Below, piece by piece: positions 1,801-64,000 of a stretch of 64,000 bases of DNA (position 1 is the stretch's first letter; each line of letters opens with the position of its first letter). The notes under the pieces are model-generated. The model had not been told where the DNA came from. It saw only the letters and a list, made by a program, of their open reading frames with translations, and made no database searches. Source of the DNA: Tragulus kanchil. Lineage: Eukaryota; Chordata; Mammalia; Artiodactyla; Tragulidae. A program made the position numbers and the translations under genes. Location: positions 135,666,831 through 135,730,830 of the forward strand of contig JAIOJX010000002.1 in NCBI GenBank assembly GCA_022376925.1, in the 5' to 3' direction.

Positions 1801-4800
1801 ATATAAACCACAGTCCTTCAGGATCCCATTATGAAAATTCAGAGCGGGGACCTGTGTCTTCTGCAAGTGACTCTAATACAAACTGCAAGGATGCTGTTGT
1901 GAACGACTGCCCTGAGAAAGGAGCATGGCCCTCAGGCCCTGGCAGTGACGCTCCAGAGTCGGCGTCAGAATGTGTGGGTGCTGAGTCTGCCTCCAGCTCT
2001 GAGTCGGAGCGAACCATCACTATCATGGCTTCGGGGAGCACAGGGGGTGAAAATGATGGCCTTCGGAATAGCACTGGACTTGGATCCCAGAACAAGTTTG
2101 TGGTTGGTAGCAGCAGCAATAACGTGGGCCAGGGAGGTAGTCCTGGGCCGTGGGGGTTTTCCCATGGAGCCATAATAAGCACATGTCCGGTCTCTGTGGA
2201 TGCTCCTGAAAGCCAATCGGAAAGCAGCAACAGTAGAATGAATGCTTGGGGCACTGGAAGTTCTTCATCAAATGGAGGGTTAAATCCAAGCACTTTGAAT
2301 TCAGCTAGCAACCACGGTGCCTGGCCAGTATTAGAGAACAACGGACTTGCCCTGAAAGGGCCTGTAGGGGGCGGTAATTCTGGCATCAATATTCAGTGCA
2401 GTACCTTGGGCCAGATGCCTAACAATCAGAGTATTAACTCTAAAGTGGGTGGCTCTTCCACCCATGGTACCTGGGGAAGCCTTCAGGAAACTTGTGAATC
2501 TGAAGTAAGTGGTACACAGAAGGTTTCATTCAGTGGTCAACCTCAGAATATTCCCACTGAAATGACTGGACCAAATAACACTACTAACTTTATGACCTCT
2601 AGTTTACCAAACTCCGGTTCAGTACAGAATAGCGAACTGCCTGGTAATCCAGGGGCCTGGCGCGTGAGCACAATGAATCACCCTCAGATACCGGCTCCGT
2701 CCGTGGTGAATGGCACTTCCCTCTCTCACCTTAGCAACGGAGAGGCCAAGAGCGGAGCCTCGTACGGTACGACGTGGGGGGCCTACGGTTCTAACTTCTC
2801 TGGAGACAAATGTTCGAGCCCGGGCGGCCAAGCTAACGGTGACACTGTGAACGCAACTCTCATGCAGCCTGGCATGAACGGGCCCGTGGGCACTAACTTT
2901 CACGTCACCACCAACAGAGGCGGAGGCGGCGGCGTGTGGGAGTCAGGGGCCTTGAACCCCCAGAGCGCCTCGTGGGGCAACGGGGCGGCGGCTGGAGGAA
3001 GTCGACGCGGATGGGGAGCCCCTGCACAGAACACTGGCACTGACTCACCCAGCGTGGAATGGAGCAAACTGCCTGGCAATCAGCATTCCAACGACAGTGC
3101 CGACGGCAACGGGAAGAAGTTTACAAACGGATGGAAGTCTACTGAGGAAGAGGATCAAGGCTCCGCCACGTCTCAGACAAATGAGCAAAACAGTGTGTGG
3201 GCCAAAACGGGAGGGACAGCGGAGAGTGAAGGTAGCACAGAGAGCACTGGACGCCCTGAGGAGAAAGTGACTGGGGAAAATCAGAGTAGAGACAGAAGGA
3301 AAATTGATCAGCACACCTTACTCCAAAGCATTGTAAACAGAACTGACTTAGATCCGCGTGTCCTGTCCAACTCGGGTTGGGGACAGACTCCTATTAAGCA
3401 GAATACTGCCTGGGACACCGAAACGTCCCCCAGAGGGGAGAGAAAGACTGACAACGGGACCGAGGCCTGGGGAAGCTCTGCCGCACAGACTTTTAACTCA
3501 GGGGCGTGTGGGGAGAAGGCGAGCCCCAGTGGCAATGATACCTCATCTGTCTCGGGGTGGGGAGATCCCAAACCGGCTCTGAGGTGGGGCGATTCCAAAG
3601 GCTCAAGCTGCCAGGGGGGATGGGAGGATGGCTCTGCTGCTACAGGAATGGTCAAGAGCAATCAGTGGGGGGGCTGCAAGGAGGAGAAGTCCGCGTGGAA
3701 TGATTCGCAAAAGAGCAAACAGGGTGGGGCGACGGGTCAAGTCCAGCCAGGGCTGGTCCGTCTCTGCCAGCGATAGCTGGGCGAGACGTCGAGGAGTCAA
3801 CGCGTGGAATGATTCGCACCTAGCCGGCTCCGTCCGTGGTGAATGGCACTTCCCTCTCTCACCTTAGCAACGGAGAGGCCAAGAGCGGAGCCTCGTACGG
3901 TACGACGTGGGGGGCCTACGGTTCTAACTTCTCTGGAGACAAATGTTCGAGCCCGGGCGGCCAAGCTAACGGTGACACTGTGAACGCAACTCTCATGCAG
4001 CCTGGCATGAACGGGCCCGTGGGCACTAACTTTCACGTCACCACCAACAGAGGCGGAGGCGGCGGCGTGTGGGAGTCAGGGGCCTTGAACCCCCAGAGCG
4101 CCTCGTGGGGCAACGGGGCGGCGGCTGGAGGAAGTCGACGCGGATGGGGAGCCCCTGCACAGAACACTGGCACTGACTCACCCAGCGTGGAATGGAGCAA
4201 ACTGCCTGGCAATCAGCATTCCAACGACAGTGCCGACGGCAACGGGAAGAAGTTTACAAACGGATGGAAGTCTACTGAGGAAGAGGATCAAGGCTCCGCC
4301 ACGTCTCAGACAAATGAGCAAAACAGTGTGTGGGCCAAAACGGGAGGGACAGCGGAGAGTGAAGGTAGCACAGAGAGCACTGGACGCCCTGAGGAGAAAG
4401 TGACTGGGGAAAATCAGAGTAGAGACAGAAGGAAAATTGATCAGCACACCTTACTCCAAAGCATTGTAAACAGAACTGACTTAGATCCGCGTGTCCTGTC
4501 CAACTCGGGTTGGGGACAGACTCCTATTAAGCAGAATACTGCCTGGGACACCGAAACGTCCCCCAGAGGGGAGAGAAAGACTGACAACGGGACCGAGGCC
4601 TGGGGAAGCTCTGCCGCACAGACTTTTAACTCAGGGGCGTGTGGGGAGAAGGCGAGCCCCAGTGGCAATGATACCTCATCTGTCTCGGGGTGGGGAGATC
4701 CCAAACCGGCTCTGAGGTGGGGCGATTCCAAAGGCTCAAGCTGCCAGGGGGGATGGGAGGATGGCTCTGCTGCTACAGGAATGGTCAAGAGCAATCAGTG

Positions 4801-5519
4801 GGGGGGCTGCAAGGAGGAGAAGTCCGCGTGGAATGATTCGCAAAAGAGCAAACAGGGGTGGGGCGACGGGCCGAAGTCCAGCCAGGGCTGGTCCGTCTCT
4901 GCCAGCGATAGCTGGGGCGAGACGTCGAGGAGCAACCACTGGGGAGAGGCCAACAAGAAATCTAGCTCAGGAGGCAGTGACAGCGACAGGTCCGTCTCTG
5001 GTTGGAACGAACTCGGGAAAACTAGCTCTTTCACATGGGCAAATAACATAAATCCAAATAACTCATCAGGCTGGGATGAATCTTCCAAACCGACCCCTTC
5101 CCAGGGATGGGGAGACCCTCCAAAGTCCAATCAGTCTCTCGGTTGGGGAGATTCGTCAAAGCCGGTCAGTTCTCCAGACTGGAACAAGCAACAGGACATT
5201 GTCGGATCTTGGGGAATCCCGCCAGCGACCGGCAAGCCCCCCGGCACAGGCTGGCTGGGAGGACCCATGCCGGCCCCAGCGAAAGAAGAGGAACCCACGG
5301 GCTGGGAGGAGCCGTCCCCAGAATCCATTCGTCGCAAAATGGAGATCGATGACGGCACTTCCGCTTGGGGAGATCCCAGCAAATACAACTACAAAAACGT
5401 GAACATGTGGAACAGAAATGTCCCCAATGGCAGCAGCCGTGCAGACCAGCAAGCACAGGCACATCCGTTGCTGCCCTCTGCGAGTGCCATGGCGAGCAAG
5501 GAGGCGAGCGGCGGCTCCG
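1801..5519 (+). CDS. TNRC6A: TNRC6A large GW-repeat exon, with an internal 1133-base duplication
   Basis: The acceptor tttcttctag ends at 1800 and the donor CCG/gtgagt is at 5520. This exon encodes most of the Argonaute-binding region, with many GW/WG dipeptides ([40 protein letters not shown] and others). It includes the conserved hook-type segment [17 protein letters not shown] (near 4500) and later [13 protein letters not shown]. As assembled it cannot be translated through: 2691-3796 is a first copy of 3824-4932. The first copy loses frame near 3724 and stops at 3774-3776. Removing 2691-3823 leaves 2586 bases, a multiple of three, fully open and in the correct phase at both ends. The reading starts with D/INHS and ends GGSG joined to WGEPWG of the next exon. 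Confidence 0.95.
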
Positions 5520-8500
5520 GTGAGTCCTTGGTTCCTCGGGTCTCGGTCGTAGTTTCACAGGGCTTCGCAGCCCTGGTGTGGGCCTGGTTTCCCGTTTATT
5601 GCTCTCATAAGGTCTGTTAAACAGAGTGTGTGGAGGTGCACACCGAGCTTTTCTCTCTCTGTCACTCTAATCCAGGAGAAGTCTATAGGGAAGAAAATCA
5701 CGGGGATGGCGTTTACCACCGGGGAACGGCTCTGCCTGTGGCAGGATTGCTTATGAGTCCCAGTGACTCCAGTCTCTGCAGGAGGCTAGAGAAGGCAGAC
5801 CTGGACACGGGCTGTCAGGCGCAGTGCTTCTCTCAGCTCGGTTGTTCTGAGTGGAGCCAGTGTGATTAGTTGACCATCCCCAGAAATGAAAAAGTATCTA
5901 AAAGCACAATGCTCTCTAAAAACCTAAGTACTGTATTTGGCCTTAGAAGGGATTTATTTAAGTAAGCGTGAAATTTAAGTCTGCCGGATTCCGCGTGTAT
6001 GTGTGTGACAATGACATTTTTCATTAGTTGTCATTAAGATGTGTTGTCTTTGTGAATGGAGGTTTCATTGAATAATAATCCCACTAGATGTAGAAGAGAC
6101 AGAAGTGTTTTCATGAACTAACGTTTCAGCGCCTATTTCTTTTTTCTGAGTATTATTAGTTTATATTTAGTTCTTGGAATGAATGGGTGGGTATCTAAGG
6201 GAAAAACTTGTGGTTCCTTTAAGCAATGTCTTTATGGCTTGGCTTTGTCCTTTTGTTTATTATCGTTGGCTTTGGACGACTTAATAATTTTAAGAAGCGT
6301 TGTCCACAATATATAAGTAGGCTACTTGCCTATTGTTATTATTATATTAAATTGCATTTTCAAGAACAGTAACGTTGAAAAGTTATACTTAAAGTAAAAG
6401 GTTTATACACATACTGCTACCCAGCTTGATCATTTGCTTTAATTCACTAGGTTTGACTCAGAATGACTTAGCTTTTCTAGGAATCAAATTCATCCTCAAA
6501 GGAGGATGACATGCCATAATTAAGGTTATTCAGAAGAATCTGCTGTGCACCCAGAGACCGATTCTGAAATTAGAGATGAAAAAGATTCATACCATATAGT
6601 TTAATTATAAAAATGGGAAATTATTGGTCTTGCTTACATCAAACAGAGGCCTTCCTTTCTGCCCATTACAGCATTGTTATTTAATACATAAATATGAAGG
6701 TCTTCAAATATTCCTTATTGCCCCTTCCCCATGCTGATGACTTCTTTTCCTACACTCTCTAAAGGCTGGGGTGAGCCCTGGGGGGAGACCTCCACTCCAG
6801 CCACAACTGTGGATAATGGTACTTCAGCCTGGGGGAAACCCGTCGACAGTGGGCCCAGCTGGGGCGAACCCATGGCTGCAGCATCCGGCACATCCACGTG
6901 GGGCTCCGGCTCTGTTGGTCCACAAGCATTAAGCAAATCTGGTAAGTTTCTCATCATTCCTGGTTTCCGTTTTATAGCTGTGGTGATCTCACTGACTGTA
7001 ATTAAGCAATTGGGTAACATTTATGGTGTTGATAATGTAGCTTCATATTACCGTAATCATCAGCCACTTTCATGCTATCCAGCACAAGAGACCGAGTGGA
7101 ATAGTTATGAGGACACATATCCAGACTATCTGGCTCCGGTTCCAGGCAAGTCCCTCAATATTACACAAAAAAAATTTGGAAGAGAAAGTTTTCAAACCAA
7201 GGATACCGATCGGTTCATTATTAGAATGGAGGTTTCATTGAATAATAATCCCACTAGATGTAGAAGAGACAGAAGTGTTTTCATGAACTAACTTTTATTT
7301 TTTTAAAAGTTTATATTTAGTTCTTGGAATGAATGGGTGGGTATCTAAGGGAAAAACTTGTGGTTCCTTTAAGCAATGTCTTTATGGCTTGGCTTTGTCC
7401 TTTTGTTTATTATCGTTGGCTTTGGACGACTTAATAATTTTAAGAAGCGTTGTCCACAATATATAAGTAGGCTACTTGCCTATTGTTATTATTATATTAA
7501 ATTGCATTTTCAAGAACAGTAACGTTGAAAAGTTATACTTAAAGTAAAAGGTTTATACACATACTGCTACCCAGCTTGATCATTTGCTTTAATTCACTAG
7601 GTTTGACTCAGAATGACTTAGCTTTTCTAGGAATCAAATTCATCCTCAAAGGAGGATGACATGCCATAATTAAGGTTATTCAGAAGAATCTGCTGTGCAC
7701 CCAGAGACCGATTCTGAAATTAGAGGTGAAAAAAGATTCATACCATATAGTTTAATTATAAAAATGGGAAATTATTGGTCTTGCTTACATCAAACAGAGG
7801 CCTTCCTTTCTGCCCATTACAGCATTGTTATTTAATACATAAATATGAAGGTCTTCAAATATTCCTTATTGCCCCTTCCCCATGCTGATGACTTCTTTTC
7901 CTACACTCTCTAAAGGCTGGGGTGAGCCCTGGGGGGAGACCTCCACTCCAGCCACAACTGTGGATAATGGTACTTCAGCCTGGGGGAAACCCGTCGACAG
8001 TGGGCCCAGCTGGGGCGAACCCATGGCTGCAGCATCCGGCACATCCACGTGGGGCTCCGGCTCTGTTGGTCCACAAGCATTAAGCAAATCTGGTAAGTTT
8101 CTCATCATTCCTGGTTTCCGTTTTATAGCTGTGGTGATCTCACTGACTGTAATTAAGCAATTGGGTAACATTTATGGTGTTGATAATGTAGCTTCATATT
8201 ACCGTAATCATCAGCCACTTTCATGCTATCCAGCACAAGAGACCGAGTGGAATAGTTATGAGGACACATATCCAGACTATCTGGCTCCGGTTCCAGGCAA
8301 GTCCCTCAATATTACACAGAAAATGAAGAGAGTTTTCAGGAAGAACCCTCAGTGTTCAGACAAACATTGTCACTATTCCCATAGAGACTCCAAAGCCCAA
8401 GTATAGAGATTACTTTCTGTTATGACCATGGTACTTCTGGGCCATTCTCCTTTTAAAAAAATGTATTAATAATTTTTTTAAATTCCATTCAACCTCGTAG

Positions 8501-11500: not shown

Positions 11501-14500
11501 ATTAACAACTCTATGGAAAGAGTTGGTTGGAGGAGAAATGATTGGCTAAAAATGAGAGTTGAGAATTGTCTTGAAGTTTAATTAACCCATCACTATATAC
11601 CCAGATAAATAGAGATGGCCATGGCATCTTTCTACTCTTTTATTTTACAAAGGGAATGATGAAAGGTGGAAACAAACAAGAAGAAGCATGGATAAATCCA
11701 TTTGTAAAACAGTTTTCAAATATCAGTTTTTCGGTAAGTGTCTTAGCAACCTCTTCCTTTGTATGGTTTTCTTAAATTATTCTTTGAGTCCTTGTGAATA
11801 TGCTGAGATTAGAGTAAAATTTTTCATGAGGTCTTTATTTTTACAGTTTTAGCTAAAAATATCACATATCTTTTTTGTACTAGTTTTTACCATATTAGGC
11901 AGTGAAAACTATAGTTTTGTAATCCACTTAAATTTCACAAATAAGGAAATAAAGTAAAATTCTTCACTTTTATTTTCATTGATAAGTGAAAGTCAACTAA
12001 CAAGCTACTTTTTCCTTCTTCAGAGAGACTCACCAGAAGAAAATGTACAGAGCAATAAGATGGACCTTTCTGGAGGTAAGAACGGTTTGAGTTTTATATT
12101 CATCATTGATGGGGAGGCCTCTCTGTGGTATAATCCGACTGAAAGTGCCCTGGCCTCAACCAGGACCGGGAGGTCTGGGTCTCTGCGTCGGGGTTCCTGT
12201 GCTCGCCGGCATTTATTAGATTGTGGGGGTTATGTGATGTGGTGTGCTTTCTGAAGTGTAAGTCTCTGTGCACATCTAAGCTTCTGGTACTGTTGGTCTT
12301 TGGTTACCTCGGATTTTGTCCTGCCGAGAATGTTACCCAGGTTGGGTGATGCAGTCTCAGTTTAGGGGACTCTTGTTACAAAGGCCCAGATATATGACAG
12401 AGACATCTGAAACCATACTGGAGATACGACAAGTAACTCAGATAGTTAAGAATCTGCCTACAATGCAGGAGATCCAGGTTTGATCCTTGGGTCAGGAAGA
12501 TCCCCTGGAGAAGGGCATGGCAACCCACTCCAGTATTCTTGCCTGGAGAATCCCATGGACAGAGGAGCCTGGCAGGCTACAGTCTGCAGGGTTGCAAAGA
12601 GTTCAACTATCACATCACATCGTGAGATCACAAAAGAATGAGAGTGTGGTGATGGTGACTAGCTGTACCAAGGTGGAGTTGCTAGAAAACTAGCTAGGTG
12701 CTAAACCATTTCTACTCTTTTATTTTACAAAGGGAATGATGAAAGGTGGAAACAAACAAGAAGAAGCATGGATAAATCCATTTGTAAAACAGTTTTCAAA
12801 TATCAGTTTTTCGGTAAGTGTCTTAGCAACCTCTTCCTTTGTATGGTTTTCTTAAATTATTCTTTGAGTCCTTGTGAATATGCTGAGATTAGAGTAAAAT
12901 TTTTCATGAGGTCTTTATTTTTACAGTTTTAGCTAAAAATATCACATATCTTTTTTGTACTAGTTTTTACCATATTAGGCAGTGAAAACTATAGTTTTGT
13001 AATCCACTTAAATTTCACAAATAAGGAAATAAAGTAAAATTCTTCACTTTTATTTTCATTGATAAGTGAAAGTCAACTAACAAGCTACTTTTTCCTTCTT
13101 CAGAGAGACTCACCAGAAGAAAATGTACAGAGCAATAAGATGGACCTTTCTGGAGGTAAGAACGGTTTGAGTTTTATATTCATCATTGATGGGGAGGCCT
13201 CTCTGTGGTATAATCCGACTGAAAGTGCCCTGGCCTCAACCAGGACCGGGAGGTCTGGGTCTCTGCGTCGGGGTTCCTGTGCTCGCCGGCATTTATTAGA
13301 TTGTGGGGGTTATGTGATGTGGTGTGCTTTCTGAAGTGTAAGTCTCTGTGCACATCTAAGCTTCTGGTACTGTTGGTCTTTGGTTACCTCGGATTTTGTC
13401 CTGCCGAGAATGTTACCCAGGTTGGGTGATGCAGTCTCAGTTTAGGGGACTCTTGTTACAAAGGCCCAGATATATGACAGAGACATCTGAAACCATACTG
13501 GAGATACGACAAGTAACTCAGATAGTTAAGAATCTGCCTACAATGCAGGAGATCCAGGTTTGATCCTTGGGTCAGGAAGATCCCCTGGAGAAGGGCATGG
13601 CAACCCACTCCAGTATTCTTGCCTGGAGAATCCCATGGACAGAGGAGCCTGGCAGGCTACAGTCTGCAGGGTTGCAAAGAGTTCAACTATCACATCACAT
13701 CGTGAGATCACAAAAGAATGAGAGTGTGGTGATGGTGACTAGCTGTACCAAGGTGGAGTTGCTAGAAAACTAGCTAGGTGCTAAACCATGAGGAGCTTGG
13801 GTGTCTGGGCTTTGTTCTGAAAGTGTGGGATTAAAGAATTGTAAGCAAGAGAGTGAAATGATCTGGATTTGTGTTTTAGAAAAATAATCATGGCTGTAGA
13901 TTTAAACTATCTTGGGACAGAAAACACTGGCAGCAGAGGAACTCTAGAAGATGCTAAACATAGAAACCAGTTAGAGGTTTGTTGTTATAGCCAGTGAGAA
14001 TTTTCAGAGCTCTAAACTAAGATGATTGGTGGGAAGAATCTTAATTCAGTGGCGATAATAGGAATCAGAATAAAAGTTGATAGCTGGTTTGAACCAATTT
14101 GTTAAGGAGGATGAGTCTGAGGGTGTTGTAGAAGATAATTCCCAACCTTCTTGCCTGGACAGTTTTGCAAGTGGTAGCGTGACTGTGTTAGTCTGAGTCA
14201 GGGCGCAAGAGAGAAACTGCATAGTAATTTGAATAGGGAGCGTATAGTACAAATGTAGAGAGTTACTGTTAGACTGATGAGGGACTGGCTAGGGAGAGAT
14301 AATGAGAGGACCTCTCAAGAGTATATGAATAGCAGGTGTAAGAAGTAACCTACATTAAAAAAAAATGAATATATAAAAATGAAGTAACTTACAGACTAAA
14401 TTGTGAAGTCAACTTTTAGCAGCTTAAAAAATTGCAAAAAGGGAAGTGAAAGAAAATGGCCTATACAGATGACAGATAAGTAACATGCAGAACTATTGCC

Positions 14501-17500
14501 GTCCTTACTTCTATAATTGATCACAAGCTCTCGCTGATGTCTTTGGCTTTCTTCTTGTGTATCCGTTCATCCTTCCCCACCGTCAGCCAGCACCTCAGCG
14601 GCTCGGGGTTCTTTGGCTGATGGAGTGGATCCAGACCTTCATGCCTGCAGGGTCTGAGCCCTCATTCAGCTTGTCTTTTTTGGTTGCTATAGTTTTTCAT
14701 TAACCTTTTCTGCCGGGCATGGAATTACCCTAGAAGTGTGTGCACACACACACACGGCCTGGGTTCTAGAGCCTTCACTTTTCTCCTGGGCCATCAGAAT
14801 CAGTCACTCCAGCTAATAGATGGGCCAGTCTGACCCCCGGCCCCTTTGCCTGCTGGTTCAGTGGCTTAAGCACTGTGGAGTGTCCTTTGGTGGTTTTCGT
14901 CTTCCCCTTCAGTGGAAGTATTTTTCTCTCTTGAGAGCTAAGATCTCTCTAAGCCTGCCGAGTTGCTAGAAGAGGAAGTAAGGATTTTCTGGGGGGTTTA
15001 TCAAGTGAAATAGTGAGAGAAGCCCCTCCTACTTTCACCTTTTGATTCTTATTGCATCCTTTCAGGATATTGTCTCTCAGCTTGCTTTGTAACTGAGTCT
15101 TCAGTAGCCAGTTGTACCCATCAGTTTGGCTGCCTGCTTGAGGGTGACGCATGTGGCAGGACCTGTTAAGACCATTACTACTCCGTTTCCTTTGCTATGA
15201 AAGGAGTTCTTTGATCGCAGTGCTTGAAGAGGGGTGGGTGAGGCCTCCGTGTGAGACCGTGGGTGGCAGTCAGTGGAGGGGAATCCACATCTAGAATGTG
15301 TGTCTGTCCCCATGGGCACAGGGGTCTGCCTTCCGCATGGCTCACTGAATGGCAGCAGAGTTGCTGGGGCTGTGCTGTTGGAGCTGGCTGGAAATCTACC
15401 CTGCTGGGTGCTGGGCAGAGCTGCTCATGGAGGGATACTTCGCTGAGTCACTCTGCTACAGAACTGCTTGGAAGGCTGTGGGATTACCGGGAGAAGCTGA
15501 CCTCTGAGTGAGGCTGGCCACCCGCAAGAGTCGGGCACAGGAGAAGCTGTAAGTGCGACCAAAGCCTCCAGGAACAAGTAGGCAAGACGTCTGCCTGCAG
15601 TGGCTCTCCAGCACCCTCTTGTCAGCAAAGCCTCAGTGCCCTTTGGCACAGGAAAAAAATGCAGAGCCCAGATACAGCTTCATAGAGCAGTCAAAAAGGG
15701 CAAATTTGGAGCTAAGAGACAATAAATCAATAACTGGCCATTATTTGAGATAGGACATAATAGTAAGAATAATAGGTTGGATAGACAAGGTTGCTGAATT
15801 TAAAATTGCTATGAAAACCGCATGATGGTGTCCAGTATACAACAAAATACCTGAATGTGGAGCTCAGACAAGGTAGGGCTGGAGATAACAAGTGTAACTG
15901 ATTAGACATTGATGGTAGTACAGCCTCAAAAATGGGTTGCAGGCTTCCCTGGTGGTCCAGTGGGTAAGGACACTGCCTTGCAGTCCAAGTGGTGCCGGTT
16001 CGATCCCTGGCCTGGGAAGATCCCACGTGCCGGGGAGCAGCTGGAATGGTGTGTCCGGCCACCAAGCCGGAGCTCTGGAGCGCATGTACTCAGAGCCAGT
16101 TCTCTGCAGCGAGAGAGGCCACTGTGGTGGGAGGCCCACAAAGGCCGAAGAACAGGGATGGAAATGAATGAAAAATCAATAGAAGTGCCCCCCCCCCCCA
16201 AAGGATTGCCTAGGGAGTTCCCTGGTGGTCCAGCAATTAGGACATTTTAAGTTTCAAAAAAAGGGGGGCGGGGTGTTGACTAGCACTGCCTTTTGTTAAA
16301 AATGTTGCCTGCAAGGAGGGTCGTAAGGGTGTCATGGTGGCTGCAGAAGCAGGCCTCTCGAGAAGGGCAGCACTGAGAAGCTGTGGGTGAGAATGGAGGA
16401 GGCGCCTCAGGAGGCAGTGGCGTGAGCGAGGTGCTGGGGCTGTGCTGTTGGAGCTGGCTGGAAATCTACCCTGCTGGGTGCTGGGCAGAGCTGCTCATGG
16501 AGGGATACTGCTGAGTCACTCTGCTACAGAACTGCTTGGAAGGCTGTGGGATTACCGGGAGAAGCTGACCTCTGAGTGAGGCTGGCCACCCGCAAGAGTC
16601 GGGCACAGGAGAAGCTGTAAGTGCGACCAAAGCCTCCAGGAACAAGTAGGCAAGACGTCTGCCTGCAGTGGCTCTCCAGCACCCTCTTGTCAGCAAAGCC
16701 TCAGTGCCCTTTGGCACAGGAAAAAAATGCAGAGCCCAGATACAGCTTCATAGAGCAGTCAAAAAGGGCAAATTTGGAGCTAAGAGACAATAAATCAATA
16801 ACTGGCCATTATTTGAGATAGGACATAATAGTAAGAATAATAGGTTGGATAGACAAGGTTGCTGAATTTAAAATTGCTATGAAAACCGCATGATGGTGTC
16901 CAGTATACAACAAAATACCTGAATGTGGAGCTCAGACAAGGTAGGGCTGGAGATAACAAGTGTAACTGATTAGACATTGATGGTAGTACAGCCTAAAAAA
17001 TGGGTTGCAGGCTTCCCTGGTGGTCCAGTGGGTAAGGACACTGCCTTGCAGTCCAAGTGGTGCCGGTTCGATCCCTGGCCTGGGAAGATCCCACGTGCCG
17101 GGGAGCAGCTGGAATGGTGTGTCCGGCCACCAAGCCGGAGCTCTGGAGCGCATGTACTCAGAGCCAGTTCTCTGCAGCGAGAGAGGCCACTGTGGTGGGA
17201 GGCCCACAAAGGCCGAAGAACAGGGATGGAAATGAATGAAAAATCAATAGAAGTGCCCCCCCCCCCCAAAGGATTGCCTAGGGAGTTCCCTGGTGGTCCA
17301 GCAATTAGGACATTTTAAGTTTCAAAAAAAGGGGGGCGGGGTGTTGACTAGCACTGCCTTTTGTTAAAAATGTTGCCTGCAAGGAGGGTCGTAAGGGTGT
17401 CATGGTGGCTGCAGAAGCAGGCCTCTCGAGAAGGGCAGCACTTGCGTAGAAGCTGTGGGTGAGAATGGAGGACGGCGCCTCAGGAGCAGTGACGTGAGCT

Positions 17501-20500
17501 GACAGGGTGTTTCCACACGTCGAACGCCAAGGTCTCGAGGCCGTGTGACCATGAGAGTGAAGATGCCATTGCGGAGCCCCTTGAAAACCCAAGGGCAGTG
17601 TCCTGCTTGGTTTCACAGTTAGAAGTGACCGAGGGGCGTTCACGTGGCCGTGCCCGGCAGGCAACTAAAGATGAGCGACTGAGCACAGGCCTGAAATCAG
17701 AGTAGACGTATTTGAGGGTTGCCTTGGTGATGCCCTCAGCCTAAGGGAAGCCATTTTGAAGAGAGAAGACTGACCTTGAACATGCTGAGTACCTTCCAGC
17801 ATTGAAGAAACACAAAGAAATGGACTCAGCTATGGAGAGAGGAGAAGCCAGAACAGGCATGATATGATAAGAGTATGAAGATTTGTTTAGGACGGTGACT
17901 GGGAGCTGACTGTTTTGAGCAAAGATTTTTGCTAGAGAGGGTACCGTGAGACAGGGTCATGTTGATTGCAGAGAAGTCAGAATGAGGAGGGCAGAACAAG
18001 CCCTTAGGGAGGGAAGATCTTTCCCGGATGCTGAATGGGGAGCTGATAGTAGCGTTATAAGCATTAAAGGAGAATGCACAGTCAGAATAGGGCCTGGCTC
18101 ATTGTGAATATCTGCTGGATGATGATTTGTCTGGTGCTGTTTCTGTTTTTTACTGGAAACAGTTGCTACAAAATTAAGCAGATGAGAGATGACCAAAGAT
18201 GGATTGTTTCTCTTCACTAGTCTGTTTTCAGGTTATTTGGTTCAATGAAATCATAGTATCTGCTAAACCCAGCTTGTGAGGAATCTTAAATGCTAGTGTA
18301 TTCTTCACGTGTCCTTGTCAAGGCAGAAGTCATTTTGGTTTGGAAGCAGGTATTTCTCTTGTAAATTTATCTGAAACCAGATAGGTTAATTATCTTCCTA
18401 CTTGATGACATAGTCTCCTGCATTTATTAGGAATGTTACAAGACAAACGAATGGAGATAGATAAACATAGCCTAAATATTGGTGATTACAATCGAACGGT
18501 CGGGAAAGGCCCTGGTTCTCGGCCTCAGATTTCCAAAGAGTCTTCCATGGAACGCAGTCCTTATTTTGATAAGGTAAGTTGTTTGTTATGTTCTCTGTCT
18601 GTTTTAACCCCTGTGGCCAAGAAAGCAATACACTTAATAGTATAATTTCTCATTAATAGTCTAGAACATTTAATATAATATAAAGTGTTATAACCCAGTG
18701 CCAAATATCATTGAACTTGTAGTTCGTTGTCCTTTTATGTCTCAATTTATCATAGGGGTCGTATTTATATTTTCCTCTTAATCCCATAAAATATGTTTGG
18801 TTCTTTTTTGTGTGCTCTAGAATTAACACTAATCTGATCTCTTCTGTTTTCTGCCTGTTTCCTGTTGGTGCTGGAATGTCATGTGACTTCTCTCCTGTTC
18901 CTGCCATGGTTTCTCCCTTCCACTTGTTTGCTTGGCTGGTGTTGCACATCTTTCTGTCTGTCCAATCAGGATGGCATTGTAGCAGATGAATCCCAAAACA
19001 TGCAGTTTATGTCCAGTCAAAGCATGAAGCTTCCCCCTTCAAATAGTGCACTACCTAACCAGGCCCTGGGCTCCATAGCAGGGCTGGGTATGCAAAACTT
19101 GAATTCTGTTAGACAGGTAAGTCCACGCTGTATTTCAGGCTCTCTGTTAACAATTTGTATAAGTAGTAAGATCTCTCTTGCCTGTTAGTTGCTGTGTTTA
19201 AATCAGTATTACAGTGTGGTAAAGAGGTACGACCCCAAAGAACCCCAGTGTTACTGTGGTGGTGGTTTGTTTCACAGTGTTTTCCTTGTCTTTAAGGCAG
19301 AAACAATTTCCAAATTGTGAGGAATCTTAAATGCTAGTGTATTCTTCACGTGTCCTTGTCAAGGCAGAAGTCATTTTGGTTTGGAAGCAGGTATTTCTCT
19401 TGTAAATTTATCTGAAACCAGATAGGTTAATTATCTTCCTACTTGATGACATAGTCTCCTGCATTTATTAGGAATGTTACAAGACAAACGAATGGAGATA
19501 GATAAACATAGCCTAAATATTGGTGATTACAATCGAACGGTCGGGAAAGGCCCTGGTTCTCGGCCTCAGATTTCCAAAGAGTCTTCCATGGAACGCAGTC
19601 CTTATTTTGATAAGGTAAGTTGTTTGTTATGTTCTCTGTCTGTTTTAACCCCTGTGGCCAAGAAAGCAATACACTTAATAGTATAATTTCTCATTAATAG
19701 TCTAGAACATTTAATATAATATAAAGTGTTATAACCCAGTGCCAAATATCATTGAACTTGTAGTTCGTTGTCCTTTATGTCTCAATTTATCATAGGGGTC
19801 GTATTTATATTTTCCTCTTAATCCCATAAAATATGTTTGGTTCTTTTTTGTGTGCTCTAGAATTAACACTAATCTGATCTCTTCTGTTTTCTGCCTGTTT
19901 CCTGTTGGTGCTGGAATGTCATGTGACTTCTCTCCTGTTCCTGCCATGGTTTCTCCCTTCCACTTGTTTGCTTGGCTGGTGTTGCACATCTTTCTGTCTG
20001 TCCAATCAGGATGGCATTGTAGCAGATGAATCCCAAAACATGCAGTTTATGTCCAGTCAAAGCATGAAGCTTCCCCCTTCAAATAGTGCACTACCTAACC
20101 AGGCCCTGGGCTCCATAGCAGGGCTGGGTATGCAAAACTTGAATTCTGTTAGACAGGTAAGTCCACGCGTGTATTTCAGGCTCTCTGTTAACAATTTGTA
20201 TAAGTAGTAAGATCTCTCTTGCCTGTTAGTTGCTGTGTTTAAATCAGTATTACAGTGTGGTAAAGAGGTGTACGACCCCAAAGAACCCCAGTGTTACTGT
20301 GGTGGTGGTTTGTTTCCGTAGAATGGCAATCCCAGTATGTTCGGTGTTGGAAACACAGCAGCACAACCCCGGGGCATGCAGCAGCCTCCAGCACAACCTC
20401 TCAGTTCATCTCAGCCTAATCTCCGTGCTCAAGTGCCTCCTCCATTACTCTCCCCTCAGGTAAATACCCTTCCGTTACAGTCTCTGCTGTTCACCGGGGG

Positions 20501-48813: not shown

Positions 48814-50468
48814 CCGTGTAGACTAGACTCGACGAACTGCGACCTCAAGTGACGAAAGAAAGGAGCAAAGGTTGGGCTCGCCGCCTGCAGCCCGGGGCCA
48901 CCTGTGGGAACAGCTCTTCTCTGCACATTCTCCACTTTGTTTTCCCTGAAACATATCAGTTTGAATACTTGAATCATGCAGGCCAATATTATAATGTGAA
49001 AAGGTATCTATTTACACTCCCAAATAGCGCCATACATGCTAAACCGTATAGAATGAGCTCACTTGTGTATATTCATCATGTTTAGCCTTTTGAGTTCTTT
49101 TTTTTTTGCCCCTTCCCTTTCTACCCCTCCCCCCCATTCATTCTTTTTCTCTTCTTTTTTTTCTTTTTGCAAACAGTTGTTTTGGGCTGATAATGTATGA
49201 GCTTTTAACTTTGCACTGAAGGGTGTTCTCTCCGTCTAATCGGCAATATGGGGGGGCAGCTGTTCCAGTGTAAATGTTTACTCAAGGATGTTCTTAAGGT
49301 GTGCGCTCTCTACTATGCCTTGATGTTTGCCTACCTTATTGTGGTATCGTGGAGTTTAAAAGATCAAGTTATGATACTGACTTAGGAGTATAAATGAAAG
49401 TATTGCACCAGTTTTTTTCATGTTATAAAACTAAAGAATTTCACTCTGCAGTTTGAAAAACTGTGGCCACAGCTGTGACTTGCAGCCCACCTGCCACCCA
49501 GGACGGGCCCTGCACTTTGAATAGGCTTTCCATTTTGTTTTGAAGGTTCCCACGTCGAGCCTTCTTGTTTACAGATTTTTTTGTTTGTTTTTTGAGAAAA
49601 AAAAAAAATGTTTACTCTTCCATCATTTAAAAAAAATTTAAAAGACAAAAAAAAATGGAGGATGATTTAAAAGATGCTTTCTATCTCTGGGAAAAAGGAG
49701 CAGCATTTGGCCATGTTCTTTTGTTTTTCTATTCCTGTCCTAAATCCAAGAGCATGGTTCTCAGGAAAACCAGTTCCCCAGTTAAAAAAAACAAAAACAA
49801 AAAAAAAAACGCCTCGTAGTTTCTTATAGGAAAAAAGAAAAACCCCAACTTTTAGCACTGATACTACATACTGCTCTGTTAGAAGAATTTTCTCTGCCAA
49901 AAAGAAAAAAAAAGAAAAAAAACATACAAAAAAAACCGCTTAAAGCTGGAGTTTGAGGTTCTGCTTTCCGATGCTGTCTTTTTATTAGTGAGTGATGATG
50001 GTTTGCTGATGATCACTAGGTAATACTTTTTGTAATCCCATCAAGTGGCTCTACGTTTCCGCTCTCGTGACCGTGTTCATGTTTAACTGTTGTACCTTAA
50101 AGCCGAAATCAGTAACTATGAATACTGTAACCAAGATATTGGGCTTACAGAATTGTTCGTTGTATAAAGAAAATTTTAAATGTTGTTGCAGACTAACGAG
50201 TTACACCATTTTTAAGAACTTCTTTCTCTCCCCACCCCCCTTGTTTTGCCCACAAATGGTATTATAAGGCTTGCTTAGTCAAAGAAGAGACTAAGCAAGG
50301 GTAAAAAATTCTAACAGTACAGAATTTGCCATCATTTCATTGCCTTGATTCTAACTGTTTGTGTCCTAAGATGCAAAAGAAGTCAGTGGCTTTTAACTGT
50401 TTACAATAGAATGTGATTGTAAAATGTACAGTTTGGTTGTGTTTGAATTATGAACTTTCTTCAGATAT

Positions 50469-53285: not shown

Positions 53286-54014
53286 CCTTGTCCACTGGGT
53301 CCTGCCCTGAAGCCTTGACTCGATGTTCCCTGTCTCCACTGAGAAATGCTGCCATGACCCCTCCCGGCCTCGGCAGCTGGAATAAAACCCATGTCCTTCT
53401 GGATAGGGTGGCACTGGAGCAGAGCCCTACAGGCCGTGAAGCAGCAGCCAGGCCTGGGCAAAGAGCCGTCCTGCAGGCCGGGAGGGCCTCAGGGTGAGCC
53501 AGCGAGCTGACACAGGAATCCAGCCAGACAGAGGGTGAGGACAAGTGCTGGTTCCTCTGTGGCTGCTTACTAGCATTACGCAGGAGGTGGACACATGTTA
53601 CAATCTGACATCCCTCTGTCTTCCTGTTTTCTGTCTATCCCCAACTAGTGCATAAGACAGGAGCCTTGCTGGGCCCTCTCCCATTGTAGGCTCCACAAGG
53701 GACCCATCCCCCTTTTCTAAGTTTATTTACTTGTTTGACTGCATCAGGTCTTAGATGCAACACGCGAGATCTCAGTGTCCTCACGCGGGATCTTTCCGTG
53801 TGGCACAGGGACGCATGTGGGATCTTAGTTCCCCAACCAGGGACTGAACCCATGTCCCCTGCATTGCAAGGCAGATTCTTAACCACTAGACCACCAGGGA
53901 AGATCCCACAAAGAACCCTTGTGATGAGGACAGTCTTCAGTGTGTGGTGGGCACATCAACCCACACATGTGGTAAACTCAGATAGAGCTAAATGCCCGAA
54001 CACACACACACACA

Positions 54015-54046
<32 letters not shown>

Positions 54047-55483
54047 GTAAAACCGGGATATCTGAATAAGCTCGGGGTCCTGGTTGGGATACTGTACTGT
54101 AAGATGTTGCTGCTGCGGAAACCAAGTCAGGAGTCTATGAGATCTCTCTCTATTATTTCTTTCTTCTTTTTTTGGCCAAGACCATGGATCAAACCCTCAG
54201 AAGGAAAGTGCAGTCCTAAGCACTTGACCACCAGGGAATTCCTTCTGCATGATTTCTTATAGCTGTTTGTGAATCTACAATTATCCCCCCCAAAATGTCG
54301 ATCTAAAGAATGAGTTAAGCTCTTCCTAAAGCAGTAGTTGGTTTTATTTATGTTAAAGATTTATTTGTTTTTGCCTGTGCTGGGTCTCCTTGTCCACTGG
54401 GTCCTGCCCTGAAGCCTTGACTCGATGTTCCCTGTCTCCACTGAGAAATGCTGCCATGACCCCTCCCGGCCTCGGCAGCTGGAATAAAACCCATGTCCTT
54501 CTGGATAGGGTGGCACTGGAGCAGAGCCCTACAGGCCGTGAAGCAGCAGCCAGGCCTGGGCAAAGAGCCGTCCTGCAGGCCGGGAGGGCCTCAGGGTGAG
54601 CCAGCGAGCTGACACAGGAATCCAGCCAGACAGAGGGTGAGGACAAGTGCTGGTTCCTCTGTGGCTGCTTACTAGCATTACGCAGGAGGTGGACACATGT
54701 TACAATCTGACATCCCTCTGTCTTCCTGTTTTCTGTCTATCCCCAACTAGTGCATAAGACAGGAGCCTTGCTGGGCCCTCTCCCATTGTAGGCTCCACAA
54801 GGGACCCATCCCCCTTTTCTAAGTTTATTTACTTGTTTGACTGCATCAGGTCTTAGATGCAACACGCGAGATCTCAGTGTCCTCACGCGGGATCTTTCCG
54901 TGTGGCACAGGGACGCATGTGGGATCTTAGTTCCCCAACCAGGGACTGAACCCATGTCCCCTGCATTGCAAGGCAGATTCTTAACCACTAGACCACCAGG
55001 GAAGATCCCACAAAGAACCCTTGTGATGAGGACAGTCTTCAGTGTGTGGTGGGCACATCAACCCACACATGTGGTAAACTCAGATAGAGCTAAATGCCCG
55101 AACACACACACACACACTCTCTCTCTCTCTCTCTCTCCAAGTAAAACCGGGATATCTGAATAAGCTCGGGGTCCTGGTTGGGATACTGTACTGTAAGATG
55201 TTGCTGCTGCGGAAACCAAGTCAGGAGTCTATGAGATCTCTCTCTATTATTTCTTTCTTCTTTTTTTGGCCAAGACCATGGATCAAACCCTCAGAAGGAA
55301 AGTGCAGTCCTAAGCACTTGACCACCAGGGAATTCCTTCTGCATGATTTCTTATAGCTGTTTGTGAATCTACAATTATCCCCCCCAAAATGTCGATCTAA
55401 AGAATGAGTTAAGCTCTTCCTAAAGCAGTAGTTGGTTTTATTTATGTTAAAGATTTATTTGTTTTTGCCTGTGCTGGGTCTCC
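53286..55483 (+). repeat. direct tandem duplication 12 (offset 1102)
   Basis: 53286-54387 and 54388-55483 abut. Apart from a shorter AC/TC microsatellite in unit 2, the units read identically. Intergenic. Each unit contains an old reverse CHR SINE (53715-53905 and 54817-55007) and a second fragment (54165-54245 and 55262-55340). Confidence 0.94.
54000..54043. repeat. compound AC/TC microsatellite
   Basis: (AC)n followed by (TC)n. The counterpart at 55102-55137 is about seven bases shorter. This is the main difference between the two units of duplication 12. Confidence 0.9.
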
Positions 55484-56412: not shown

Positions 56413-56625
56413 GTCCTCCCAGTGGAAACAGAGCGCGAGATGGAGTCCTTCTCTGTCTCCTCTCCAGCCGCCAGCCCTAGGAAGCTGCTCATCTGCTTTC
56501 TGCCGCTATAAATCTGCCTGTTCTGCGTACTTTACATAAACGATCTGTATCATCCCATACATGGCCTTTCATGTCTAGTTGGTACCTCTGGAAGTTCTCA
56601 CTTCCCTGGTGGAACCGAGAACCCA

Positions 56626-56830
56626 GGGAGCTTCCCTGGTGGCTCAGCAGTGAAGAATCCACCTGTAATGTAAGAGACCTGGGTTCAGTGCCTGGGTCGG
56701 GAAGACCCCCTGGAGAAGGGAATGACAGCCCACTTCTTGCCTGGAACATCCCCGTGGACAGAAGAGCCTGGCGGGCTACAGTCCAGGGGGTCTCAAAGAG
56801 TCAGGCACAGCTGAAACGACTGAGCTCCTA
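56626..56830 (+). mobile_element. Bov-tA type SINE
   Basis: gggagcttccctggtggctc, gagacctgggttcagtgcct, agaccccctggagaagggaa, cccgtggacagaagagcctg, tcaggcacagctgaaacgac. Copy at 57785-57989 through duplication 13. Confidence 0.85.
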
Positions 56831-56929
56831 CAATGTCTAGCTTAGTGGAAATTTCACTTAGAGTAAGGCTTTAAGCATTCATCTGTAATGTTTAAAACAT
56901 CGTTGCATGTGTCAGAATTTCCTTCCTTT

Positions 56930-57060
56930 TTATTTTTATTTATTCATTTTTGGTCATGCTGCATAGCATGTACGATCTTAGTTCCCCAACTAGGGATCGA
57001 AACTGTGTCCCTGCAGAGGAAACTCGGAGTCCTAACTACTGGACCTAAGGAATTTCCGTC
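56930..57060 (-). mobile_element. old reverse CHR-type SINE fragment
   Basis: tttggtcatgctgcatagca, ttccccaactagggatcgaa, ctaactactggacctaagg. Copy at about 58087-58219. Confidence 0.6.
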
Positions 57061-57114
57061 TTCCTTTTGAAAACAGAATACACGGACTGTGTGATTAAGC
57101 TATTTCCTGCCTAG

Positions 57115-57360
57115 GCATTTGCTCAAGAGAAGAGAAGTGTATCTAATGTATGCTGTTGTTTACAGCACTATAGTTATAGTCAACCCCAAACTGGAAATAA
57201 CTGAAAGATTCACCAACAGACAAACAGAGAAATAAAGTGTGACATATCCACCCAATGGAATTATTATGTATATACATACTTATAACTGAATCACTTTGCT
57301 GTAAAGCAGAAATTAACATGACATTGCAAATCAACTAGACTTCAATTAATTTTTTAATTA
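57115..57360 (+). mobile_element. L1 LINE 3' end fragment
   Basis: Words of the artiodactyl L1 3' end: tgaatcactttgctgtaaag, acattgcaaatcaactagac, ttcaattaattttttaatt. Copy at about 58274-58520 through duplication 13. Confidence 0.7.
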
Positions 57361-58764
57361 AAGACTCAATGCAATGAAACTATCATAGATAAACCCAACA
57401 ACATGGATGAATCTCAAAATATGATACTGAGTGGAAAAAAAAGCCAATCAAAAAAAAGTGCATGCAACATAATACTGCTTGTGTAGAATTTAAAACATGT
57501 AAACTAGGCTATACTTCCTAAAATCAGATCAGTGACTGGGGAGACAGTAGGTGCCAGGAAACGTTGCAGGCTGTGGATGTTAACAGGTGACCACATATGG
57601 CCAGCGTACTCTGTCTCCTCTCCAGCCGCCCAGCCCTAGGAAGCTGCTCATCTGCTTTCTGCCGCTATAAATCTGCCTGTTCTGCGTACTTTACATAAAC
57701 GATCTGTATCATCCCATACATGGCCTTTCATGTCTAGTTGGTACCTCTGGAAGTTCTCACTTCCCTGGTGGAACCGAGAACCCAGGGAGCTTCCCTGGTG
57801 GCTCAGCAGTGAAGAATCCACCTGTAATGTAAGAGACCTGGGTTCAGTGCCTGGGTCGGGAAGACCCCCTGGAGAAGGGAATGACAGCCCACTTCTTGCC
57901 TGGAACATCCCCGTGGACAGAAGAGCCTGGCGGGCTACAGTCCAGGGGGTCTCAAAGAGTCAGGCACAGCTGAAACGACTGAGCTCCTACAATGTCTAGC
58001 TTAGTGGAAATTTCACTTAGAGTAAGGCTTTAAGCATTCATCTGTAATGTTTAAAACATCGTTGCATGTGTCAGAATTTTCCCTTTCCCTTTTTTATTTT
58101 TATTTATTCATTTTTGGTCATGCTGCATAGCATGTACGATCTTAGTTCCCCAACTAGGGATCGAAACTGTGTCCCTGCAGAGGAAACTCGGAGTCCTAAC
58201 TACTGGACCTAAGGAATTTCCGTCTTCCTTTTGAAAACAGAATACACGGACTGTGTGATTAAGCTATTTCCTGCCTAGGCATTTGCTCAAGAGAAGAGAA
58301 GTGTATCTAATGTATGCTGTTGTTTACAGCACTATAGTTATAGTCAACCCCAAACTGGAAATAACTGAAAGATTCACCAACAGACAAACAGAGAAATAAA
58401 GTGTGACATATCCACCCAATGGAATTATTATGTATATACATACTTATAACTGAATCACTTTGCTGTAAAGCAGAAATTAACATGACATTGCAAATCAACT
58501 AGACTTCAATTAATTTTTTAATTAAAGACTCAATGCAATGAAACTATCATAGATAAACCCAACAACATGGATGAATCTCAAAATATGATACTGAGTGGAA
58601 AAAAAAGCCAATCAAAAAAAAGTGCATGCAACATAATACTGCTTGTGTAGAATTTAAAACATGTAAACTAGGCTATACTTCCTAAAATCAGATCAGTGAC
58701 TGGGGAGACAGTAGGTGCCAGGAAACGTTGCAGGCTGTGGATGTTAACAGGTGACCACATATGT

Positions 58765-59858: not shown

Positions 59859-59862
59859 CTCA

Positions 59863-59960
59863 TCCAGGGACTTCCCTGGCAGCTCACTGTAGGGATGTGT
59901 GGGTCTAATTCCTTGTTGGGGAATGAAGGTCCCACATGTCGCATGACCAAAAAAACAAAG
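59863..59960 (+). mobile_element. old CHR-type SINE fragment
   Basis: gggacttccctggcagctca, gtctaattccttgttgggga, ggtcccacatgtcgcatgac, then an A-run. Directly after the L1 tail. Confidence 0.65.
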
Positions 59961-60693: not shown

Positions 60694-61625
60694 CTCACTG
60701 GCTGGACTAGAGTGACCCTAAAGAGTAGCCGTGAAATGAAAAGACGCTTGCTCCTTGGAAGAAAAGCTATGACAAACCTAGACAGCCCAGTAAAAAAGAG
60801 AGACATCACCTTGCCGATAAAAGTCCGTAGAGTCAGGGCTTCCCCTGGTGGTCCAGTGGGTAAGGACACTGCCTTGCAGTGCAAGGGGCGCCGGTTCAAT
60901 CCCTGGCCTGGGAAGATCCCACGTGCCGTGGAGCAGCTGGACCCATGTGTCCAATTACCGAGGAGCCGGAGCTCTGGAGCGCATGCGCCCAGAGCCGGCG
61001 CTCTGCAACGACAGACGCCACCGCGATGGGAGGCCTACAGGAGCCAAAGAACAAAGACGGATGAAAATAGAGAAATGAAAGACCAATAGAAGTGGCCCAC
61101 CCGCTCCTCTCCCTCCCCAACCCGACTCCCGCCCAGAATAAATAAATAAATCTTTAAAAAAAAAAAAAAAGGTCCGTAGAGTCAAAGCTATGGCTTTCCC
61201 AGTAGTCGTGTTTGGATGTGAGAGCTGGGTCATAAAGAAGGCAGAGCACCAAAGAAATGGTGCCTTTGAACTGTGGTGCTGGAGAAGGCTCCTGAGAGTC
61301 TCTTGGACTGCAAGGAGATCAAACCAGCCACTCCTAAAGGACGTCAACCGTGGAGAGTCGTTGGAAGGACTGATGCTGAAGCTCCAATATTTTGGTCACC
61401 TGATGCGAAGAGACGACTCACGGGAAAAGAGCTGATGATGGGAAAATAGAAGGCCAAAGGAGAAGGGGACGACAGAGGACGGGATGGCTGGATGGCAGTA
61501 CTGAGTCAGTGGGTATGAGTTTGAGCAAGCTCCGGAAGATGGTGAAGGACGGGGAAGCCTCGCGTGCTCTAGTCCCTGGGGTCGCAAAGAGTCAGCCATG
61601 ACTGAGCGACTGGCCTGAACTGGAC
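60694..61625 (+). mobile_element. RTE-BovB LINE 3' end split by a SINE
   Basis: The left part, 60694-60835, reads gtgaaatgaaaagacgcttg and ccttggaagaaaagctatga. The right part, 61172-61625, resumes with caaagctatggctttcccag and runs to the BovB terminus gactgagcgactggcctgaa. The right part keeps an open frame with VFGCESWVIKKAEHQRNGAF, ELWCWRRLLRVSWTARRSNQ and LKLQYFGHLMRRDDS, the C-terminal end of the BovB reverse transcriptase protein. Copy at 61829-62760. Confidence 0.92.
60836..61171 (+). mobile_element. CHR-type SINE, lineage subfamily, full length (insertion S7)
   Basis: Sits inside BovB and is flanked by gtccgtagagtca at 60823-60835 and 61172-61184, an exact 13-bp target-site duplication. 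Layout: tRNA-like head with ggttcaatccctgg, CHR body (gagctctggagcgcatgcgc, cggcgctctgcaacgacaga, gggaggcctacaggagcc), then a roughly 100-base extension (gaccaatagaagtggcccac, C-rich tract, aataaataaataaatc) and an A-tail. This is the best reference copy for the subfamily. Confidence 0.93.
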
Positions 61626-61970
61626 TGAAGGAGCAGTGGCTTCAACAACAGAACCCTGTGGCCGGGGCGGCTCCGTCACTGAGCCATATGGCTGTCAGGA
61701 GTCGGGGCTGCTTCCCCAGGTTTTTTCTATCCTTGTAGTGTTTCCCTCGTCTGCATGGCCTGAGACAGTTCTCTCCCATGGTGAATCCTTGCAGACATAA
61801 GCCAGAGCCCAGTAAAAGAGAGACTTTTCTCACTGGCTGGACTAGAGTGACCCTAAAGAGTAGCCGTGAAATGAAAAGACGCTTGCTCCTTGGAAGAAAA
61901 GCTATGACAAACCTAGACAGCCCAGTAAAAAAGAGAGACATCACCTTGCCGATAAAAGTCCGTAGAGTCA

Positions 61971-62306
61971 GGGCTTCCCCTGGTGGTCCAGTGGGTAAGG
62001 ACACTGCCTTGCAGTGCAAGGGGCGCCGGTTCAATCCCTGGCCTGGGAAGATCCCACGTGCCGTGGAGCAGCTGGACCCATGTGTCCAATTACCGAGGAG
62101 CCGGAGCTCTGGAGCGCATGCGCCCAGAGCCGGCGCTCTGCAACGACAGACGCCACCGCGATGGGAGGCCTACAGGAGCCAAAGAACAAAGACGGATGAA
62201 AATAGAGAAATGAAAGACCAATAGAAGTGGCCCACCCGCTCCTCTCCCTCCCCAACCCGACTCCCGCCCAGAATAAATAAATAAATCTTTAAAAAAAAAA
62301 AAAAAG
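61971..62306 (+). mobile_element. CHR-type SINE, duplicate copy of S7
   Basis: Carried by duplication 14, including the same target-site repeats (61958-61970 and 62307-62319). Not an independent insertion. Confidence 0.9.
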
Positions 62307-63118
62307 GTCCGTAGAGTCAAAGCTATGGCTTTCCCAGTAGTCGTGTTTGGATGTGAGAGCTGGGTCATAAAGAAGGCAGAGCACCAAAGAAATGGTGCCT
62401 TTGAACTGTGGTGCTGGAGAAGGCTCCTGAGAGTCTCTTGGACTGCAAGGAGATCAAACCAGCCACTCCTAAAGGACGTCAACCGTGGAGAGTCGTTGGA
62501 AGGACTGATGCTGAAGCTCCAATATTTTGGTCACCTGATGCGAAGAGACGACTCACGGGAAAAGAGCTGATGATGGGAAAATAGAAGGCCAAAGGAGAAG
62601 GGGACGACAGAGGACGGGATGGCTGGATGGCAGTACTGAGTCAGTGGGTATGAGTTTGAGCAAGCTCCGGAAGATGGTGAAGGACGGGGAAGCCTCGCGT
62701 GCTCTAGTCCCTGGGGTCGCAAAGAGTCAGCCATGACTGAGCGACTGGCCTGAACTGGACTGAAGGAGCAGTGGCTTCAACAACAGAACCCTGTGGCCGG
62801 GGCGGCTCCGTCACTGAGCCATATGGCTGTCAGGAGTCGGGGCTGCTTCCCCAGGTTTTTTCTATCCTTGTAGTGTTTCCCTCGTCTGCATGGCCTGAGA
62901 CAGTTCTCTCCCATGGTGAATCCCATTTAGTGAGAACAGCTACAGTGGCGTGCAGAGGACATAGCCCTTCTCTTTAAAGCCAGGACCCCCAAGTGGATGA
63001 CTCAACTATGGTTACCTCCCACGAGTTAGAACTTGATCTGACTCATGCCAATCTGGGAGGCTGTGACTTGTAGTCTTTTTTTGGAATGTCATGTCCTCAT
63101 CGAGAACGCCGAGTGTTC

Positions 63119-63330: not shown

Positions 63331-63463
63331 GAGGGTGTCTGAGAATGGCTTATCTCTGTTACCAGAGAATTACCGGATCACATTATACTGTCTCCTGAGA
63401 AAGAAAGGATGAAAATCCCTGTGCTGCACCAGATGCTGTGAACGCTAACTCACTGGATGGTGT

Positions 63464-63656
63464 AGGTCAGGGAGCAGCAAAAGTTTCCTGTAAAGAACCA
63501 GATGGGTAAATACTTTAGGCTTTGCAGCCCACACGGTCTCTGTCACAAGGACTCAGCTCTACTATGGTAGCACATCAGCAGTCAGAAACAAAATGCAAAT
63601 AAATGGGCATGCCTGTGTTCCGATAAAACTTTATAAAAAACAATTTGTAGGGCCAT
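63464..63656 (+). mobile_element. hAT-type (MER) DNA transposon fossil
   Basis: aggtcagggagcagcaaaag, ctgtaaagaaccagatgggt, actttaggctttgcagccca, aatgggcatgcctgtgttcc, gataaaactttataaaaaac. Same family as the reverse element at 22530-22770. The family name is not asserted. Confidence 0.65.
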
Positions 63657-64000
63657 GAGTCGTGGAAGGACTGAGGCTGAAGCTCCAATATTTTGGTCAC
63701 CTGATGCGAAGAGACGACTCACGGGAAAAGAGCTGATGATGGGAAAATAGAAGGCCAAAGGAGAAGGGGACGACAGAGGACGGGATGGCTGGATGGCAGT
63801 ACTGAGTCAGTGGGTATGAGTTTGAGCAAGCTCCGGAAGATGGTGAAGGACGGGGAAGCCTCGCGTGCTCTAGTCCCTGGGGTCGCAAAGAGTCAGCCAT
63901 GACTGAGCGACTGGCCTGAACTGGACTGAAGGAGCAGTGGCTTCAACAACAGAACCCTGTGGCCGGGGCGGCTCCGTCACTGAGCCATATGGCTGTCAGG
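63657..64000 (+). repeat. duplication 15: partial extra copy of the BovB block, cut by the window end
   Basis: Matches 61357-61699 (offset 2301) and 62491-62834 (offset about 1166), from the BovB right part to the adjoining unique sequence. Only one or two changes are visible near its start (ctgaggctga against ctgatgctga). It continues beyond the window. Confidence 0.92.

What the first reader, a model, noticed from the sequence alone, without database searches (positions are those of the whole stretch)
2691..64000. Recurrent direct duplications of about 1.04-1.17 kb across the whole window
Fourteen pairs and one cut-off extra copy were found, with offsets 1133, 1150, 1080, 1070, 1041, 1099, 1110, 1149, 1098, 1078, 1158, 1102, 1158, 1135 and about 1166. 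They hit exons, introns, 3' UTR, L1, BovB and intergenic DNA alike, and new units start every 2-7 kb. No known biological process makes near-identical segmental copies of one size at this density regardless of content. The narrow size range fits unmerged overlaps of contigs, or gap-fill inserts that kept about 1000 bases of flank plus a variable gap of 40-170 bases.
Basis: partly seen in the sequence, partly recalled or inferred. Interest (0 to 1): 0.88.

Follow-up and report, generated by a model that had tools for sequence, protein, structure and literature searches.

The report
Assembly artefact: unmerged 1.1-kb overlaps
The repeated 1.1-kb copies in this mammalian TNRC6-gene region are most likely not real DNA duplications but seams where a genome assembler laid overlapping pieces end to end without merging them, which falsely doubles exons and breaks the gene model.

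Summary
Observation confirmed: 14 direct tandem pairs plus a cut-off fifteenth; offsets of the 14 are 1041-1159 (mean 1111, SD 37). The copies look artificial. (1) Differences between copies sit where one copy meets the junction: 56 of 2800 columns in the outer 100 at each end against 31 of 12587 in the middle, spacers left out. (2) In 6 of 10 tested pairs the stretch between the clean copies aligns to a flank better than all 200 shuffles. (3) A relative 90% identical to the TNRC6 exon carries residues 280-646 once; the window has them twice, and copy A breaks frame just before the junction. (4) Two pieces are shorter than their two overlaps, so some DNA occurs three times. Best guess at the maker: layout units of a wtdbg/wtdbg2-type long-read assembler sharing one ~1-kb node, concatenated instead of joined; this is inferred. 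A known kind of error (homotype false duplication). Reads and the source assembly could not be examined.

The parts
2691..4932 (+). Pair 1: copy A 2691-3796, copy B 3824-4932; inside the large GW-rich exon of a TNRC6 gene
6054..8318 (+). Pair 2: copy A 6054-7167, copy B 7224-8318 (clean part 6158-7167 / 7308-8318); Argonaute-hook exon doubled
11629..13789 (.). Pair 3: 11629-12709 / 12709-13789, head to tail, no spacer, no differences
15362..17499 (.). Pair 4: 15362-16427 / 16432-17499, differences at both ends
18274..20316 (+). Pair 5: 18274-19273 / 19315-20316; two exon matches to a TNRC6-type protein (P0029) doubled at 18427/19468 and 18964/20004
22616..24818 (.). Pair 6: 22616-23717 / 23715-24818; seven substitutions confined to the last ~70 bp
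27499..29716 (.). Pair 7: 27499-28607 / 28609-29716
31793..34083 (.). Pair 8: 31793-32933 / 32942-34083
39656..41834 (+). Pair 9: 39656-40733 / 40754-41834, differing head
41619..43779 (+). Pair 10: 41619-42701 / 42697-43779; overlaps pair 9, so 216 bp occurs three times (40518-40733, 41619-41834, 42697-42912)
46813..49104 (+). Pair 11: 46813-47944 / 47971-49104; ORF 47224-47655 doubled at 48382-48813 with identical translation
53286..55483 (.). Pair 12: 53286-54389 / 54388-55483; only difference is 8 bases in a CA/CT microsatellite
56451..58763 (.). Pair 13: 56451-57599 / 57609-58763
60694..62923 (.). Pair 14: 60694-61788 / 61829-62923; doubles a tRNA-Cys-like element
63676..64000 (.). Pair 15, cut by the window end: 325 bp identical to 62510-62834 and to 61375-61699, a second triple copy

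Best explanation
The copies are false (homotype-type) duplications made by genome assembly. The window is a chain of pieces of about 2-8 kb; each piece and the next share ~1.1 kb of the same genomic DNA, and both copies were written out one after the other instead of being merged. Piece ends are error-rich, probably because they were thinly covered and because true reads cannot align across a false junction, so polishing did not reach them (inferred). The constant overlap is best explained by consecutive units of a long-read layout that share one fixed-size node, as in wtdbg/wtdbg2, whose graph point is a 1024-bp read segment (PMC7506008, passages) and which writes layout and edge sequences for a consensus program (PMC8434745, passages); that adjacent edges share a node and are joined by aligning it is recalled. 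Shown: structure, error-rich ends, single copy in relatives. Inferred: the assembler, and why joining failed. The confidence below is for the assembly artefact; for the wtdbg-type maker I give about 0.55.
For: One offset class dominates, CV 3.3% against 35% for piece length. Spacers left out, 56/2800 end columns differ against 31/12587 in the middle; with spacers forced into the alignment 156/2800 against 47/12858, where 19 of the 47 continue one noisy head and 8 are one microsatellite change. Stretches between the clean copies align to a flank beyond all 200 shuffles in pairs 2 (76 vs 27.5), 4 (88.5 vs 33.5 and, to the other flank, 49.5 vs 30.5), 6 (55 vs 20.5), 9 (42.5 vs 16), 13 (20.5 vs 12.5) and narrowly 11 (15 vs 14). 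Relatives' exon has the doubled part once; copy A of pair 1 is frameshifted near the junction while copy B follows the relative. Two pieces (about 1.95 kb and under 1.9 kb) are shorter than the sum of their two overlaps, giving 216 and 325 bp in three copies, natural for chained layout units.
Against: No reads, depth or second assembly could be examined. Of the 10 stretches tested, those of pairs 1, 5, 8 and 14 do not exceed the shuffles, and pair 11 does so narrowly among 20 tests. Searches are not independent: in pairs 2, 4, 6, 9 and 13 the stretches include bases that one search aligns as copy ends. Of the 56 end differences, 21 come from pair 2; pairs 3, 8, 12 and 14 have none at the ends. 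The overlap averages 1111, not 1024, which needs net-deletion-rich reads or over-extension (not shown). A test for 256-base steps in piece length was negative (best R 0.42, P 0.74), though the expected blur is as large as the step. In the listings seen (45 of 86 rows shown) no paper stood out as describing this defect for wtdbg2.
Confidence: 0.95

Rival explanations
1. Same artefact class, another maker: independently built short contigs with ~1.1-kb overlaps (for instance one shared end read of ~1.1 kb) were placed edge to edge without merging.
For: Differences at both piece ends; the VGP paper says homotype duplications often occur at contig boundaries and are about read length (PMC8081667, passages).
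Against: [quoted passage not shown] two pieces are wholly contained in their neighbours, which an overlap assembler would normally drop (recalled).
Confidence: 0.3
2. Gap-fill inserts that kept ~1000 bases of flank plus a new gap sequence of 40-170 bases.
For: Sizes just above 1000; PMC9516828 mentions unsupported joins due to incorrect gap filling (passages).
Against: Duplicated part is 1000-1155 bp and variable, spacers -5 to 56 bp; in 6 of 10 tested pairs the in-between stretch continues a flank.
Confidence: 0.05
3. Real tandem duplications in the animal.
For: Copies are near identical and in tandem.
Against: One size, fifteen times in 64 kb; differences concentrated at ends; would double coding exons and frameshift a TNRC6 gene.
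Confidence: 0.01
4. Heterotype false duplication: two haplotypes placed in series.
For: Also gives near-identical copies in one assembly (PMC8081667, passages).
Against: Few isolated internal substitutions: 31 differing columns in 12587 in the middles, many of them indels; constant size unexplained.
Confidence: 0.02

Closest known systems
Homotype false duplications (Vertebrate Genomes Project; PMC8081667 and PMC9516828, passages seen)
   Same: Near-identical copies at piece boundaries, with errors and few candidate haplotype variants
   Different: Here one size recurs every few kb without gaps. The offsets of 14 pairs sum to 24% of this window; the homotype share tabulated in PMC9516828 is at most 2.7% of an assembly, though a window and an assembly are not directly comparable
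wtdbg/wtdbg2 layout with 1024-bp nodes (PMC7506008 passages; joining step recalled)
   Same: Chained units with a shared segment of ~1 kb; variable unit length
   Different: Mean overlap 1111; no 256-base periodicity detected; no account of this failure stood out in the listings seen

Membership tests
Homotype false duplication | Copies near piece boundaries with errors | tested here: met
   56/2800 end columns differ vs 31/12587 middle; the boundaries themselves are inferred from the junctions
Homotype false duplication | No haplotype-specific variation between copies | tested here: inconclusive
   Few internal substitutions, but no read k-mers to judge
Homotype false duplication | Reduced read depth over copies, no read spanning both | not testable with these tools
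   No reads available
wtdbg/wtdbg2 edge overlap | Constant overlap near 1024 read bases between units | tested here: inconclusive
   1041-1159, mean 1111, CV 3.3%: constant but 8.5% above 1024
wtdbg/wtdbg2 edge overlap | Unit lengths in steps of 256 read bases (recalled) | tested here: inconclusive
   Best R 0.42, P 0.74; blur as large as the step
Gap-fill insert with 1000-bp flank | Duplicate of fixed 1000 bp plus unrelated gap sequence | tested here: not met

The most novel reading that the evidence does not exclude
A systematic, genome-wide signature of one assembler or pipeline (unjoined fixed-size layout overlaps) that, if the whole source assembly is like this window, inflates it by about a third over its true length, and that could be screened for in other public genomes by its single offset peak.
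Probability: 0.4. Interest if true: 0.3.

Novelty: already known. Interest (0 to 1): 0.12.

Why it matters
As biology it does not. As quality control it does: such seams double exons, break reading frames and would feed false gene gains, false segmental duplications and inflated genome size into databases. The constant size makes them easy to detect by self-alignment.

Tried and rejected
Biological tandem duplication, haplotype duplication and gap-fill inserts were considered and rejected or disfavoured (see rivals). A test for 256-base steps in piece length gave no signal. Rfam had no match at gathering scores. A search of ORF 47224-47652 against solved structures found nothing. Pfam matched 3 of the 9 translations given. 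A crude motif search for a reverse transcriptase printed no hit. Paper searches: (listings and starts of abstracts seen). The wtdbg2 paper itself is not held. Passages only were seen of PMC9848057, PMC7506008, PMC6629541, PMC9516828, PMC8081667, PMC8434745, PMC10372904, PMC12037172 and PMC6377399; none is tied to this window, and three of them (PMC9848057, PMC6629541, PMC6377399) gave nothing used here.

Full report
What is there. The window holds 14 direct pairs and a fifteenth cut by its end. Offsets of the 14 are 1041-1159 with mean 1111 and SD 37, whereas the 13 junction-to-junction distances run from 1952 to 7807 (junction positions there were set by hand inside the spacers). Of 15,292 direct 24-mer pairs counted, 14,674 have offsets of 1030-1175, 438 have 2100-2320 and 180 have others; one shuffled window has no repeated 24-mer. 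There are no N runs. The 14 offsets sum to 15,559 bases, 24% of the window; the 26% printed counts the cut-off fifteenth in full.

Gene content. Pfam finds an Argonaute-hook match in both copies of pair 2 and a TNRC6-PABC-binding match in 38995-39414; 3 of 9 translations given had a match. The homologue search with the large exon gave 90 proteins from 7990 scored candidates, one of them named as TNRC6A-like of a bat.

Why it is not biology. First, differences between copies are concentrated where one copy meets the junction. In the local alignments, spacers left out, the first and last 100 columns of the 14 pairs carry 33 and 23 differences (56 of 2800 columns) and the middles 31 of 12587. Pair 2 alone gives 21 of the 56; ten of 14 pairs have at least one end difference, and pairs 3, 8, 12 and 14 have none. 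When the whole offset is aligned, which forces spacer bases in and so raises the end counts, the numbers are 93 and 63 (156 of 2800) against 47 of 12858, with nine pairs differing at the head and nine at the tail. Second, the stretch between the clean copies aligns to a flank better than all 200 shuffles in 6 of the 10 pairs tested: 2, 4 (to both flanks), 6, 9, 13 and narrowly 11; pairs 1, 5, 8 and 14 do not exceed the shuffles. One search took narrower copy limits for pairs 2, 4, 6, 9 and 13, so this overlaps with the first point. Third, relatives P0001 to P0005 cover the exon with one set of residues while the window gives two overlapping matches; for P0001, residues 1-646 match 1854-3797 and 280-896 match 3827-5713. 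Weaker matches at 20-24% identity also appear there, with low-complexity filtering off. Copy A of pair 1 leaves the frame shortly before the junction, where copy B continues as P0001 does. Fourth, the piece between junctions near 40738 and 42696 is shorter than the sum of its two overlaps, so 216 bp occurs three times, the first two identical and the third matching at 213 of 216. The last piece repeats the pattern: 325 bp occurs at 61375, 62510 and 63676, all identical.

Mechanism. Error-rich piece ends butted together, with one shared ~1.1-kb segment per seam, explain all of this. The constancy of the overlap points to an algorithmic unit. wtdbg2 uses 1024-bp points (PMC7506008, passages) and writes layout and edge sequences that a second program turns into consensus (PMC8434745, passages; PMC12037172, passages). 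That neighbouring edges share a node and are joined by aligning it is recalled, not from a call. If joining fails, each seam leaves one extra node. The mean of 1111 would need reads with net deletions, as in nanopore data (recalled). The test for 256-base steps was negative and weak. I put the artefact itself at 0.95 and the wtdbg-type maker at about 0.55.

Known kind. The Vertebrate Genomes Project papers describe homotype duplications near contig boundaries, often about read length, in one example from a bug in FALCON (PMC8081667, passages), and their gene-level effects (PMC9516828, passages). The present case fits that class by what could be tested; depth and read tests could not be done, and the tool for the source assembly did not answer in seven calls.

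Noticed in passing
window 36884-36958, 60840-60916, 61975-62051: ARAGORN calls three tRNA-Cys (GCA); they look like a CHR-type tRNA-derived SINE (recalled), and the third is the second copy of the second in pair 14.
   Followed up: partly
window 54015 and 55117: The only difference in pair 12 is 8 bases in a CA/CT microsatellite inside the copies.
   Followed up: no
window 23647-23702 and 39675-39700: End differences of pair 6 (7 substitutions, no indel) and the inner head of pair 9 (5 substitutions) are substitution-only, unlike the indel-rich ends of pair 2; two kinds of end noise may be present.
   Followed up: no
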